From: Gammaproteobacteria bacterium
GTDB taxonomy: Bacteria > Pseudomonadota > Gammaproteobacteria > Burkholderiales > Burkholderiaceae_C
DNA: 64,000 nucleotides
Direction of reading: 5' to 3'
Assembly (NCBI GenBank): GCA_018820395.1
Contig: JAHJOG010000272.1
Coordinates: forward strand, 1-64,000
Below the pieces are notes generated by a model. The model was given only the letters and a program-made list of their open reading frames with translations, was not told where the DNA came from and made no database searches. Made by a program: the position numbers and the translations under genes. Positions 760 to 44,559 of this stretch are shown here, piece by piece; the first letter of the stretch is position 1; every line of letters starts with the position of its first letter.

Positions 760-2700
760 TCAGGCCGGGCGCAAGGTGCCCGGAACGATCCGCGCGTCCC
801 ATTCGCGCATCATGGTCTGGATCTCGGGATCGCTGTGAATGGCCTCCTCGGCCGCCCGCTGTCGTGCTTCGGCCAGCCGCCGGTTACGCATCGCCGGACT
901 GTCGCTCACCATTCCGATTTCGATGGCGATCCTGACGCCGTGGCCCAGTGCGGCCAGCGCCGCCTGCAGCTTGTCACGGCTGCTCGGCTGGTTGAGCGAT
1001 TCTCGCTCGATCCGCAAGAGCCATTGGTCCACGTCGCGCGCCACCAGTTGCGATTGCAGCGCCAGCTCCCTGGCCAACGCCGCAATGGCTTCGGCCGCCA
1101 CCAGGTCGGTCACCAGCGCGTGCCAGAAGTCGCCTTCCTCACTGGACACCATGGCGGTCGCCTCGCTCTCGCTCGCGCGGGCGGCGTCGTATGCCGCTTC
1201 GCGCGCACCGGCCGGAGGCTGCACACGCACCTGAACGGCCATCACCTGCATGTCGGCCTGCTCGATGCGGACGCGAGGCGTTGCGGGTGCGGAATCCGCG
1301 TCGCCGGGTGCGGGGCTCGACCTCGGAGGAAGCGATTCGATCACCGGCAGACGTTGCCCTGGCGGCGCAGCGGGCCTCGACGCGGGGCCTGGCTCGGCCG
1401 GCGCCTGCGCTCTCGACGCGGGCCTTGCCTGGCCCTCCGCGCGTTCGGCCAGGGGTTCGGGCGAGTGCGCAGGGGAAGATGCACGCACAGGTGCGGATGG
1501 GGGCTGAAGAACTGCCCTGGCTGCAGCCGGCACCGGCGTCAACGCCGGTGCCGACGCCTCATTCAGAGTTTTTTTTTCCTCGCTCGCCGCTCCGGACGGC
1601 TTGAAAGCCAGCAGCCGCAGCAACACCATCGTGAGCGCCGCATATTCATCCGGCGCGAGACCCAGCTCGGCGCGACCGTGCAGGCAGAGGCTGTAGAGGA
1701 GTTGAGTCTCGTCGGGCGGCATCAGCGCAGCGAGACGGACCGTTTCGGCTTCATCCGGGTCGGACGCGACGGTGGCTTCGATGCGTGCCGGCACCGCCTG
1801 CAGCACGGCCATGCCCTGCAGCACCGCCGTCATCTCCTCCAGCGTCGAAGCGGCAGAAAGCCCCTCGCGCCGCAGACCTTCGGCCGTTTCCACCACCGTC
1901 TTCCCGTCGCCCAGAGCCAGTGCCTCGATCAGGCGCAGCACGTGGCCGCGGTCGACGCTGCCGAGCATCTGTCGCACACCCGCTTCGACCAATCGGCCGT
2001 CGCCGAACGCGATGGCCTGGTCGGTCAGCGACAACGCATCGCGCATCGATCCGCGGGCGGCACGGGCGATGAGCCGCAAGGCGTGCGCCTCGGCAGGGAC
2101 TTCTTCGGCTTGCAGCACGCGCGTCAGATGGTCGAGCACCGTCTCTGCTGCCATGGGACGCAAATTGAATTGCAGGCAGCGCGAGAGCACGGTGACGGGG
2201 ACCTTCTGCGGATCGGTCGTCGCCAACACAAACTTGAGGTATTCGGGCGGCTCCTCGAGCGTCTTCAACATCGCGTTGAACGCGTGGCCCGTGAGCATGT
2301 GCACTTCGTCGATCATGAATACCTTGAAGCGTCCCTGGACCGGCTTGTACACCGCCTGTTCGAGCAGTGCCTGCACCTCGTCCACACCACGGTTCGACGC
2401 AGCGTCGAGCTCGGTGTAGTCCACGAAACGTCCCGAATCGATGTCGCGGCAGGCCTGGCAAACGCCGCAAGGCGCCGCCGTGATCCCGCCCTGCCCGTCC
2501 GTGCCCTGGCAATTGAGCGACTTGGCCAGGATGCGCGACACCGTCGTCTTTCCGACGCCGCGCGTGCCCGTGAACAGATAGGCATGGTGCAAGCGCTGCG
2601 AAGTCAGTGCGTTTTCCAGCGCCTGCACCACATGCTCCTGCCCGACCATCTCGCTGAACGTACGGGGGCGGTGTTTGCGAGCGAGCACGAGATAGGCCAT
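760..2700 (-). CDS. dnaX: DNA polymerase III subunits tau/gamma
   Basis: This 646-residue protein is the clamp-loader ATPase that loads the beta clamp and couples the polymerase to DnaB. The AAA+ module is at the N-terminus, with Walker A GTRGVGKTT near residue 47, a four-Cys zinc module (CQGTDGQGG region with CGVCQAC), Walker B DEVHML and sensor 1 ATTDPQK. Domain III ends near residue 370. A Pro/Ala-rich linker and the C-terminal tau domain for DnaB and alpha contact follow. Codons 375-377 contain an A9 run with a downstream hairpin (separate entry), suggesting that a gamma form of about 380 residues is also made. First gene of the dnaX-ybaB-recR cluster. Confidence 0.96.
   Translation of the reverse strand: MAYLVLARKHRPRTFSEMVGQEHVVQALENALTSQRLHHAYLFTGTRGVGKTTVSRILAKSLNCQGTDGQGGITAAPCGVCQACRDIDSGRFVDYTELDAASNRGVDEVQALLEQAVYKPVQGRFKVFMIDEVHMLTGHAFNAMLKTLEEPPEYLKFVLATTDPQKVPVTVLSRCLQFNLRPMAAETVLDHLTRVLQAEEVPAEAHALRLIARAARGSMRDALSLTDQAIAFGDGRLVEAGVRQMLGSVDRGHVLRLIEALALGDGKTVVETAEGLRREGLSAASTLEEMTAVLQGMAVLQAVPARIEATVASDPDEAETVRLAALMPPDETQLLYSLCLHGRAELGLAPDEYAALTMVLLRLLAFKPSGAASEEKKTLNEASAPALTPVPAAARAVLQPPSAPVRASSPAHSPEPLAERAEGQARPASRAQAPAEPGPASRPAAPPGQRLPVIESLPPRSSPAPGDADSAPATPRVRIEQADMQVMAVQVRVQPPAGAREAAYDAARASESEATAMVSSEEGDFWHALVTDLVAAEAIAALARELALQSQLVARDVDQWLLRIERESLNQPSSRDKLQAALAALGHGVRIAIEIGMVSDSPAMRNRRLAEARQRAAEEAIHSDPEIQTMMREWDARIVPGTLRPA
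1528..1578 (-). promoter_or_regulatory. Putative programmed slippage site in dnaX (A9 run plus hairpin)
   Basis: On the coding strand, codons GAA AAA AAA ACT give nine consecutive A residues (1577 down to 1569), containing an A AAA AAA heptamer in the reading phase. Fifteen bases downstream is a perfect 11-bp stem with a four-base loop (1553 down to 1528). A -1 shift or an extra A adds Asn-Ser-Glu and then stops. Loss of one A adds Leu and stops. Either way the product ends at residue 378-380, right after domain III. Escherichia coli dnaX (ribosomal frameshift) and Thermus dnaX (transcriptional slippage on A9) use comparable sites. The sequence is direct; the function is inferred. Confidence 0.7.
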
Positions 2701-2842: not shown

Positions 2843-2943
2843 CTGACGGGCCTCCCCGCATGGTGAAGTGGCCAACCGGGTCAGGTGGGGAACCAAGCAG
2901 CCCTAACTGCGTAGTCAGTGCCGGGGGTAAGGCTCGTCAACTA
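2843..2943 (+). ncRNA. ffs: Bacterial small SRP RNA (4.5S RNA)
   Basis: RNA of the signal recognition particle, partner of Ffh in co-translational targeting. The conserved apical hairpin is clear: GGTCAGG, a GGAA tetraloop (2889-2892) closed by GG/CC, then AAGCAGCC. The basal arms pair: TGACG (2844-2848) with CGTCA (2935-2939), GCC with GGC, and CCCCGCA with TGCCGGGG. A -10-like TACAAT lies at 2832-2837. The 5' end is estimated from pairing and the -10. The 3' end lies in the integration repeat; the T-rich stretch expected after it is absent here and is found at 15069-15077. Confidence 0.9.
2926..2943 (+). repeat. Left attachment core (attL), 3' end of ffs
   Basis: The 18-base sequence GGTAAGGCTCGTCAACTA is identical to 15051-15068. 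It forms the 3' strand of the ffs basal stem, so the element restores the RNA end on integration, as tRNA-targeting elements do. Confidence 0.85.
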
Positions 2944-3002: not shown

Positions 3003-3077
3003 TCGCTGTATCACTTGCCTGTGTCACTTCCGAAAAACCGGTCCGCGAAGATGCGGTCCAGCACCACGGAAAACGAC

Positions 3078-4754
3078 ATGGCGAAAGTCGAAGGGTTGAA
3101 CCTGCGGGGCTCCCGTTACTACGTCCGGGTACTCATTCCCGACGACCTCAAAGCTGCCTTCGGGAAGCACCGCGTGAACCTCTCCTTGGGCACCAGCGAC
3201 CGCCGCGAGGCGACCCTCCTGGCAACCCTCAAGAGGGCCGAGTGGCTCGCCGACTTCCAGGCGAAGCGGAGCGAGTTGAACCCGTCGCTGGTTGGCGCCA
3301 TCACGCCCGACATGGCCGCACTGTTAGCCGCTCGGGTCCGGGCCTATGTGCTTGCCGACGATGACCGCGTGCGTGCCGATCTGCCGCTCCTTGCGGAGAT
3401 GGTTCACATTCGTCGCGAGCTTGCGAAGCGGGACGCCAACCCGCTCATCATCCCTCAGTGGGAACCCTCAGAGCCCCGTGTCGATGACCTGACCGGCGCC
3501 ACCGAGGAGGAGCGTGAGGAACTGTCCGGCGTGAATGCCTACCTTGATGGGAAAGCTGCCGTGGCACTTGCTGGCCGCAACCTCGCTGCCGTGCTCCCGC
3601 TGGTGCAAGCCGAAGCCGCCAAGCTCGGGGTTGTGTTCGATGCCAAGACACCCGGCGCCCGCGAGGCCCTTTTGTTGGCCCTCAACGCCTACCGCACCGG
3701 GCTACGTGGGGTGACCCTTAGGGACGCCGGGGAGGTGGTCGCTACACCAGTGGTCTCTGCCACCGTGTCCCCGAAGCTTAAGGCCCGCACCCTTCGGGAC
3801 GTATTCGATCAATGGAAGGTGTCGGGTTCCAAGAGGCGCTCGGACGATTCCATCGCGGCCTATGACCGTGCCCTGCGACAGTTCGAGGGGCAGCATCATG
3901 GCGTCAACCTGGAGGCCATCAATCGCGAGCTTGGCAACGCCTACCGCACATGGCTGCGAGGCCAGTCGTCCATCTCGTCCAAGACACAGCGCGACCGCAT
4001 CACGGCCCTCAAGTCCCTGCTCAAGTTCGCTGCTATCGAACTCGAATGGATTCCCAAGCACCCCTGGATGGGGCTCGACATCGAGACCATCACCGAAGAC
4101 CCGCGCCGTGCATGGGAGGATGAAGAACTGGCGACGTTGTTTGCCGCACCGCTGCACGCGAGCTACGTACTTCCGAAGGCCCGCAACGCTGGCCGGGAAG
4201 CGGCCTACTGGCTTCCCCTTCTGGGTCTCTTCACGGGGGCTCGATTGGGTGAACTCTGCCAGCTTCGGACGGCTGATGTGCAGAACGTGAAAGGCATCGA
4301 CGTGCTGGTGGTCACGGACGATGGTGAGGACCAGAAGGTGAAGACCGAGGCCGGACGCCGAAGCGTTCCGATCCACAGCGAACTCATTCGCCTCGGCTTT
4401 CTTCGGTACGTCGAGACCATCAGGGCATCGGAAAGCGACGCCTTATGGCCCTCTCTGCCGCTCCGTGAAGGGAAGCCGAGCGACTACTTCGGGCGATGGT
4501 TCCGCGAGCACCGGACGCCGCTGGGGCTGAAGCCGACCTTCCACTACTTCCGGCATACGGTGCGCCCGTTGATGCGCCGCGCCGGGTTCAGTGAAAGCAC
4601 GCAGGACAAGATCACGGGTCACGAAACAAAAGGGAGTATTGGTAGCACCGTCTACGATCACTGGACGCTGAAAGAGCTTCAGAGCGCCGTAGAAGCGATC
4701 CAGTACCCCACCCTCAGGTTGTGTGTTGTGACGCCGTCAGGGTTGACGGACTGA
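3078..4754 (+). CDS. Tyrosine-type site-specific integrase
   Basis: A 558-residue integrase that probably moves the element in and out of ffs. The N-terminus (NLRGSRYYVRVLIPDDLKAA) resembles the DUF6538-type arm-binding region. A core-binding SAM-like domain is centred near residues 250-330, followed by the catalytic domain. Catalytic residues are visible: Arg in TGARLGELC (about residue 389), HYFRHT with the second Arg (about 492), GHE, and Tyr in TVYDHW (about 526). The ATG at 3078 is preferred over an upstream ATG at 3015, since homology begins there. The gene starts 134 bases inside attL, and its 3' end overlaps the convergent nuclease gene by 41 bases. Confidence 0.92.
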   Translation: MAKVEGLNLRGSRYYVRVLIPDDLKAAFGKHRVNLSLGTSDRREATLLATLKRAEWLADFQAKRSELNPSLVGAITPDMAALLAARVRAYVLADDDRVRADLPLLAEMVHIRRELAKRDANPLIIPQWEPSEPRVDDLTGATEEEREELSGVNAYLDGKAAVALAGRNLAAVLPLVQAEAAKLGVVFDAKTPGAREALLLALNAYRTGLRGVTLRDAGEVVATPVVSATVSPKLKARTLRDVFDQWKVSGSKRRSDDSIAAYDRALRQFEGQHHGVNLEAINRELGNAYRTWLRGQSSISSKTQRDRITALKSLLKFAAIELEWIPKHPWMGLDIETITEDPRRAWEDEELATLFAAPLHASYVLPKARNAGREAAYWLPLLGLFTGARLGELCQLRTADVQNVKGIDVLVVTDDGEDQKVKTEAGRRSVPIHSELIRLGFLRYVETIRASESDALWPSLPLREGKPSDYFGRWFREHRTPLGLKPTFHYFRHTVRPLMRRAGFSESTQDKITGHETKGSIGSTVYDHWTLKELQSAVEAIQYPTLRLCVVTPSGLTD

Positions 4755-44354: not shown

Positions 44355-44431
<77 letters not shown>

Positions 44432-44482: not shown

Positions 44483-44559
44483 CTGCCCGTAGCTCAGTTG
44501 GATAGAGCATCGGCCTTCTAAGCCGAATGTCGGGGGTTCGATCCCCTCCGGGCAGGCCA
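44483..44559 (+). tRNA. tRNA-Arg (anticodon TCT)
   Basis: A full 77-base cloverleaf with encoded CCA. Acceptor CTGCCCG/CGGGCAG, anticodon arm TCGGC-CTTCTAA-GCCGA, and T-loop TTCGATC. It lies 51 bases after tRNA-Pro, likely on the same transcript. Confidence 0.97.

What the first reader, a model, noticed from the sequence alone, without database searches (positions are those of the whole stretch)
1528..1578. Likely programmed slippage site in dnaX giving a gamma subunit
dnaX codons 375-377 form an A9 run, followed 15 bases later by a perfect 11-bp hairpin. Both shifted frames reach a stop within one to four codons, right after domain III. Comparable sites make gamma in E. coli and Thermus; I do not know of one described for this group.
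Basis: partly seen in the sequence, partly recalled or inferred. Interest (0 to 1): 0.7.

Follow-up and report, generated by a model that had tools for sequence, protein, structure and literature searches.

The report
Conserved A9 slippage site in dnaX
A run of nine As in the gene for a DNA-replication clamp loader, kept across a large group of soil and water bacteria with stop codons waiting in both wrong reading frames, very likely makes the cell produce a short as well as a long version of the protein.

Summary
dnaX (window 2700-760, minus) has A9 at 1569-1577, ten codons after domain III. Slipped readings stop at once: A8 gives 378 aa, A10 380, A11 379, against tau of 646.

The genus is Variovorax. 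A9 is kept in 95 of 96 genus sites seen (37 of them by motif match only), 80 of 80 named close relatives, and 86 of 92 rows of one clade on a dnaX tree; the other six carry A8 (2), A10, AAAAAAG (2) or an AAAAAG site with one unread base. The linker around it is nearly unalignable. Of 134 A9 genes, 130 meet a stop within 3 codons in the +1 frame (6.5% in codon shuffles) and 126 within 7 codons in the -1 frame (12.9%). E. coli-type sites keep only the -1 stop that close. Keeping both is what RNA-polymerase slippage (Thermus type) needs; -1 ribosomal frameshifting needs one.

The 11-bp hairpin is real but not conserved. My searches found no report of this site in this group. No RNA or protein data were available: gamma, its amount and the mechanism are inferred.

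The parts
760..2700 (-). dnaX, full-length tau reading frame (646 aa, 69.2 kDa)
1569..1577 (-). A9 run in GAA AAA AAA ACT: the slippage site (also reads A_AAA_AAA in the phase for a -1 ribosomal shift)
1563..1565 (-). TGA met in the +1 frame (runs of 8 or 11 A): gamma of 378 or 379 aa, ending KKL or KKKL
   Evidence: nearness of this stop in relatives
1559..1561 (-). TGA met in the -1 frame (runs of 7 or 10 A, or a -1 ribosomal shift): gamma of 379 or 380 aa, ending NSE
   Evidence: nearness of this stop in relatives
1528..1553 (-). perfect 11-bp inverted repeat (13 bp when folded, 1526-1555) after the run; peculiar to this species, probably not required

Best explanation
The A9 run is a programmed slippage site that lets one dnaX gene give two clamp-loader subunits. 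RNA polymerase slips on the run of nine template Ts and makes dnaX mRNAs with 8, 9, 10, 11 or more As. Those with 9 (or 12) As are read through to tau (646 aa, with the C-terminal domain that Pfam describes as binding the polymerase). All others meet a stop within a few codons in whichever shifted frame results, giving gamma of 378-380 aa, about 41 kDa, made of domains I-III only. Shown here: the run, the stops, their conservation, the predicted products. Inferred: that slippage happens, that it happens at the polymerase rather than the ribosome, the tau:gamma ratio, and that gamma is used. A -1 ribosomal slip on A_AAA_AAA may add to it and would give the same 380-aa gamma.
For: A9 kept in 57 of 58 genus genes read, by motif in 94 of 101 genus genomes plus G407 by reading, in 80 of 80 named loci, in 77 of 104 family genes outside the genus, 69 of 95 genera, in 86 of 92 rows of one tree clade whose other 6 rows have another slippery sequence. 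Lys codons elsewhere in domains I-III of these genes are AAG 1163: AAA 269, yet the site is AAA AAA. The run survives amino-acid changes: ACN or AGN after it, GAA or CAA before it. Flanking linker identity is 0.34-0.39 and linker length 6-78 nt. Stops: +1 within 3 codons in 130 of 134 and -1 within 7 in 126 of 134, against 6.5% and 12.9% in codon shuffles; both within 7 in 91.8% against 1.6%; outside the genus 73, 70 and, for both, 66 of 77. Mechanism: A_AAA_AAG sites have the -1 stop at codon 1-4 in 6 of 6 (E. coli control included) and the +1 stop at 7-59. No Shine-Dalgarno enrichment upstream. The window's genome has tRNA-Lys CUU and UUU, as the review says of Thermus. Runs of 9 A or T are reported as highly slippage-prone in vivo (PMC5009743 passage).
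Against: No transcript or protein data. The phase of the run never changes (137 of 137 runs of 8 or more) and fits the -1 heptamer A_AAA_AAA, which polymerase slippage does not require, though common descent explains it too. Some A9 genes lack a near +1 stop: L084, L137 and L306, and 8 of the 80 named loci have it beyond codon 3. The five A9 genes found outside the family have no +1 stop within 3 codons. The two-tRNA-Lys pattern does not separate genomes with and without the site. 22 of 104 family genes have no site at all, so gamma is not universally needed. The codon-shuffle null ignores shared descent.
Confidence: 0.75

Rival explanations
1. -1 ribosomal frameshifting alone: tandem slip of tRNA-Lys on A_AAA_AAA, then AAC TCT GAA TGA, giving a 380-aa gamma as in E. 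coli.
For: The run is always in the phase that fits the heptamer. The -1 stop is near in 126 of 134. Two clade members carry A_AAA_AAG, one of them (L185) with a hairpin 6 nt later. The five A9 genes outside the family have the -1 stop at codon 1-10 and no +1 stop within 3 codons.
Against: It does not explain a +1 stop within 3 codons in 130 of 134 genes, nor nine As where seven suffice. [quoted passage not shown] coli (passage).
Confidence: 0.17
2. A protein-level motif: E/Q-K-K-T/S is kept for a function of the tau linker, and the codons are incidental.
For: The residues are indeed kept, with C as the first base of the second codon after the second Lys codon in all 77 family A9 genes.
Against: AAG is the usual Lys codon (81% in domains I-III) but AAA AAA is used; E to Q and T to S changes keep the run; the near stops in both shifted frames have no meaning for tau.
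Confidence: 0.04
3. A DNA-level contingency (phase-variable) run that switches between tau and gamma-only alleles by replication slippage.
For: One genus genome (G004) has A8 and its frame stops at 387 aa while a long open frame continues in another frame.
Against: 95 of 96 genus sites are A9; loss of tau should be very costly; a homopolymer error in that assembly is as likely.
Confidence: 0.04

Closest known systems
Thermus thermophilus dnaX transcriptional slippage (Larsen et al. 2000; read only through passages of PMC1088944, PMC3711429 and PMC5009743; the paper itself is not held)
   Same: Nine As in the sense strand, tau in one frame, stops close by in both other frames, two tRNA-Lys species in the genome.
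   Different: Different phylum; here conservation across many genera is shown by comparison while slippage itself is not shown. [quoted passage not shown] here it is at 58%, straight after domain III.
Escherichia coli dnaX -1 programmed ribosomal frameshift
   Same: Same gene, same place after domain III, gamma ends within a few codons, Lys-Lys codons.
   Different: E. coli has A_AAA_AAG at codon 428, -1 stop at codon 1, +1 stop at 11. The Variovorax site has A9, no consistent SD or hairpin, and both stops near. Two clade members (L135, L185) do have the E. coli heptamer.
Neisseria dnaX site (A_AAA_AAG; listed in Recode-2 and in the logo of PMC3711429, passages only)
   Same: A gamma site in another beta-proteobacterial lineage.
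   Different: Ribosomal heptamer, not A9.
Two-ORF dnaX genes of Antonov et al. 2013 (PMC3711429, passages)
   Same: Poly-A runs (often 10 A) at the same kind of place, transcriptional slippage proposed.
   Different: There the zero frame stops and slippage is needed for tau; here tau is the zero-frame product (G004 with A8 would be of that reversed kind if real).

Membership tests
Thermus-type dnaX transcriptional slippage site | Homopolymer of nine As in the dnaX coding strand | tested here: met
Thermus-type dnaX transcriptional slippage site | Stops close by in both non-zero frames | tested here: met
   window: codon index 1 (+1) and 3 (-1); 130 and 126 of 134 A9 genes at the thresholds
Thermus-type dnaX transcriptional slippage site | tau encoded in a single zero frame | tested here: met
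   646-codon ORF with domain V
Thermus-type dnaX transcriptional slippage site | mRNAs heterogeneous in A-run length | not testable with these tools
   no RNA reads held
Thermus-type dnaX transcriptional slippage site | tau and gamma both present in the cell | not testable with these tools
   no protein data held
Thermus-type dnaX transcriptional slippage site | separate tRNA-Lys for AAA and AAG (suggested correlate) | tested here: met
   tRNA-Lys CTT and TTT in the window's genome; but family genomes without the site have both too
E. coli-type dnaX -1 frameshift | A_AAA_AAG heptamer | tested here: not met
   window reads A_AAA_AAA then C; L135 and L185 meet it
E. coli-type dnaX -1 frameshift | Shine-Dalgarno-like stimulator upstream | tested here: not met
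   134 A9 genes: longest match 0 in 66, 3 in 45, 4 in 23, none longer; shuffles reach 5 or more in about 4%
E. coli-type dnaX -1 frameshift | conserved downstream stem-loop close to the shift site | tested here: not met
   window stem starts 13-15 nt after the run and is not conserved; downstream mean z -0.29 to -0.46
E. coli-type dnaX -1 frameshift | only the -1 frame needs a near stop | tested here: inconclusive
   window has both; this does not exclude a ribosomal contribution
Two-ORF dnaX (tau made by recoding) | zero frame stops at the site | tested here: not met

The most novel reading that the evidence does not exclude
Almost a whole family-sized lineage (Comamonadaceae-type dnaX) depends on RNA-polymerase slippage at one fixed A9 to make gamma, and within it some lineages have swapped polymerase slippage for E. 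coli-type ribosomal frameshifting (A_AAA_AAG with only the -1 stop kept near). gamma would then be under long-standing selection in these bacteria, with the route to it free to change.
Probability: 0.7. Interest if true: 0.65.

Novelty: new member of a known kind. Interest (0 to 1): 0.55.

Why it matters
Whether gamma matters has been argued over; one review (PMC3290774, passages) says most bacteria outside enterobacteria and Thermus do not keep frameshift signatures in dnaX and may make no gamma. A slippage site kept to the base across dozens of genera, in a linker that otherwise drifts freely, says that gamma is selected for in a large group of common soil and water bacteria. It offers a second, polymerase-based model in mesophiles that can be grown and engineered, and a natural comparison between polymerase and ribosome slippage at the same place in one gene.

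Tried and rejected
Downstream hairpin as stimulator: rejected as a conserved part. Perfect stems of 8 bp or more in 9 of 134 A9 genes against 2.9% in codon shuffles, 11 bp in 2; mean structure z of the 60 nt downstream -0.46.

Upstream (nascent-RNA) stem, as described for a Roseiflexus transposase in PMC5009743 (passage): structure just upstream looked strong (mean z -1.06; -0.60 to -1.35 in 45-nt windows ending within 24 nt of the site). But the signal sits on the domain III codons, appears also in order genes with no site (-0.75; same-family genes with no site -0.14), and the linker alone gives -0.28. No uniform stem abuts the run. Left as inconclusive.

tRNA-Lys set as the reason for A9 rather than A_AAA_AAG: exact-pattern search in 32 chosen genomes found both species in 21, one in 9, none in 2; family genomes without the site have both as well. 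Not a discriminator, and the exact pattern can miss variants.

Short 'tau' frames in L202, L215 and L222 looked like reversed dnaX genes; refetching showed that the contigs end there.

Rows dropped: L002 (a paralogous hit), L060 and L061 (second copies of L032 and L053), L324-L326 (refetches of L215, L202, L222). Coverage: 104 of 197 family genomes outside the genus were read, the lower-scoring ones under-represented; 72 of 116 order genomes with a match; 36 of 106 class genomes outside the order with a match, three of them cut short by contig ends. The 80 named loci are the best 80 of 585 and overlap the unnamed set.

Literature: searches. dnaX + frameshift + Variovorax and dnaX + slippage + Burkholderiales gave 0 papers. 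Larsen et al. 2000 is not held, supplements could not be read, and most subscription papers are outside the library.

Full report
What is there. dnaX lies on the minus strand at 2700-760, with ybaB (699-367) and recR-like (347-3) reading frames behind it (recR named from the sequence, not searched). The protein has the clamp-loader domains, domain III ending at residue 365, and tau domain V at 514-638. A run of nine As (1569-1577) spans codons 375-378 as GAA AAA AAA ACT. With 8 As the frame ends at CTC TGA (378 aa, 40.9 kDa), with 10 at AAC TCT GAA TGA (380 aa, 41.2 kDa), with 11 at 379 aa; 9 and 12 give tau of 646 and 647 aa. The genome has 7 places with A9 or longer.

Which organism. The window's genome (G000) is unnamed, but contigs of its genus-mates match named Variovorax records in length and dnaX position (for example G019 and L226, Variovorax sp. 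YR216; G039 and L234, V. paradoxus). The genus is therefore taken as Variovorax.

Conservation of the run. Of 61 genus genomes searched, 59 had a dnaX match; 58 genes were read and 57 have A9, one (G004) A8. Across all 101 genus genomes held, the pattern G-A8-(0-3 bases)-CTCTGA was found in 95, as A9 in 94 and A8 in G004; two genomes had one further, unrelated match each. Of the six without a match, G407 has A9 with a changed following codon, G022 holds only part of the gene, and in G383, G408, G012 and G037 no dnaX was found. That makes 95 A9 to 1 A8 among 96; 37 of these rest on the motif match alone. Outside the genus, 104 family genes from 95 genera were read: A9 in 77 (69 genera), A10 in 1, A8 in 1, A_AAA_AAG in 2, one (L141) with AAAAAG behind an unread base, none in 22. 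The 80 best named loci of the genome collection all have A9; their titles include Variovorax, Acidovorax, Rhodoferax, Ramlibacter, Hydrogenophaga, Comamonas, Curvibacter, Xenophilus, Diaphorobacter and Giesbergeria. They overlap the unnamed set and are biased to close kin. Outside the family the site is rare: of 72 order genes, 4 have A9, 1 A10, 2 A8, 1 A_AAA_AAG; of 36 class genes, 1 A9, 1 A10, 4 A8, 1 A_AAA_AAG.

History. On a FastTree tree of 154 DnaX N-terminal sequences one clade of 92 rows (local support 93, below the 95 mark) holds 86 A9 genes. The other six are A8 (L033, L159), A10 (L156), A_AAA_AAG (L135, L185) and L141. So no row of that clade clearly lacks a slippery sequence. One further A9 gene (L170) branches at the base of the family, and the 22 family genes without a site lie outside the clade. 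Support inside the family is weak, so the number of gains is not settled.

Selection acts on nucleotides. In domains I-III of the A9 genes Lys is AAG 1163 times and AAA 269 times. The codon after the run is ACT, ACA, AGC, AGT, ACG or ACC and in 5 of the 80 named loci the codon before is CAA instead of GAA: the residues change, the A9 stays. In the 77 A9 genes outside the genus, column identity is 0.34 upstream (-36 to -7) and 0.39 downstream (+21 to +60) (the 1.00 over the run itself is by selection of these rows). The distance from domain III to the site varies from 6 to 78 nt.

Both shifted frames are closed. Of 134 A9 genes (57 genus, 77 family), 130 meet a +1 stop by codon index 3 and 126 a -1 stop by codon index 7; codon shuffles of the same linkers give 6.5% and 12.9%, and for both within 7 codons 91.8% against 1.6%. 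Outside the genus the counts are 73, 70 and, for both, 66 of 77. In the named set 72, 69 and 61 of 80. Sites that look ribosomal differ. The six A_AAA_AAG-type sites, E. coli K-12 and the incompletely read L141 included, have the -1 stop at index 1-4 and the +1 stop at 7, 40, 39, 12, 59 and 11 (L135, L185, L141, L217, L368, E. coli). The A8 gene L159 has -1 at 3 and +1 at 35; the A10 gene L156 has +1 at 1 and -1 at 5. A +1 stop is of no use to a -1 ribosomal shift; it is needed if mRNAs lose one A or gain two. This is the main argument for polymerase slippage. Against it: L084, L137 and L306 have A9 but a distant +1 stop, and the five A9 genes found outside the family do not have the +1 stop within 3 codons, so some A9 sites may work as ribosomal sites.

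Stimulators. The window hairpin is strong but specific to this species, and downstream structure over the set is slight. No SD-like enrichment exists upstream. Upstream structure is notable but is explained at least in part by the domain III codons. Slippage on nine As is described as efficient without such help (PMC5009743 passage).

Known context. In Thermus the same arrangement, nine As with stops in both other frames, gives tau and gamma by transcriptional slippage; in E. coli it is a -1 ribosomal shift; in Caulobacter proteolysis (PMC5009743, section 21 read). PMC3711429 (passages) adds two-ORF dnaX genes with poly-A runs and a ribosomal site in Neisseria. PMC3290774 (passages) says that most other bacteria lack such signatures. 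None of the passages seen mentions Comamonadaceae, and targeted searches found nothing, but the library is partial. The finding is therefore a new, broadly conserved member of a known kind, with a few clade members that seem to have changed to the ribosomal form.

What is not shown. Slippage, gamma and its ratio to tau were not observed. Mechanism odds: polymerase slippage, with or without a ribosomal contribution, 0.75; ribosomal alone 0.17; the remainder protein motif or DNA-level variation.

Noticed in passing
L033 (G004), A-run at L033 about 1150; also L323: The only genus genome with A8 instead of A9: the zero frame stops at 387 aa and a long open frame continues in another frame. Either a homopolymer error or a strain that needs slippage to make tau.
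   Followed up: partly
L185 (G087) and L135 (G149): Two family members whose dnaX has the E. coli heptamer A_AAA_AAG at the place of the A9; L185 also has an 11-12 bp interrupted hairpin starting 6 nt after it and the -1 stop after one codon.
   Followed up: partly
L101 and L336 (one genus of another family), L350, L371, L214: Scattered A9 runs just after DnaX domain III outside the family, with a near -1 stop but no +1 stop within 3 codons: perhaps independent, ribosomal-type sites.
   Followed up: no
window 2845-2941 (+) and 3015-4754 (+): A small SRP RNA gene sits divergently next to dnaX, and a tyrosine-recombinase reading frame starts 74 bases after it, as if an integrated element lies beside the SRP RNA gene.
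   Followed up: no
G383 (genus genome, 99% complete): No dnaX match at E 1e-30 although the gene should be essential; probably a gap or withheld stretch in the assembly.
   Followed up: no
L317-L322 (G000): The other six places with A9 or longer in the window's genome; by eye some lie at gene ends or between genes, not annotated further.
   Followed up: partly
window 44355-44431 and 44483-44559 (+): tRNA-Pro (TGG) and tRNA-Arg (TCT) genes in tandem.
   Followed up: no
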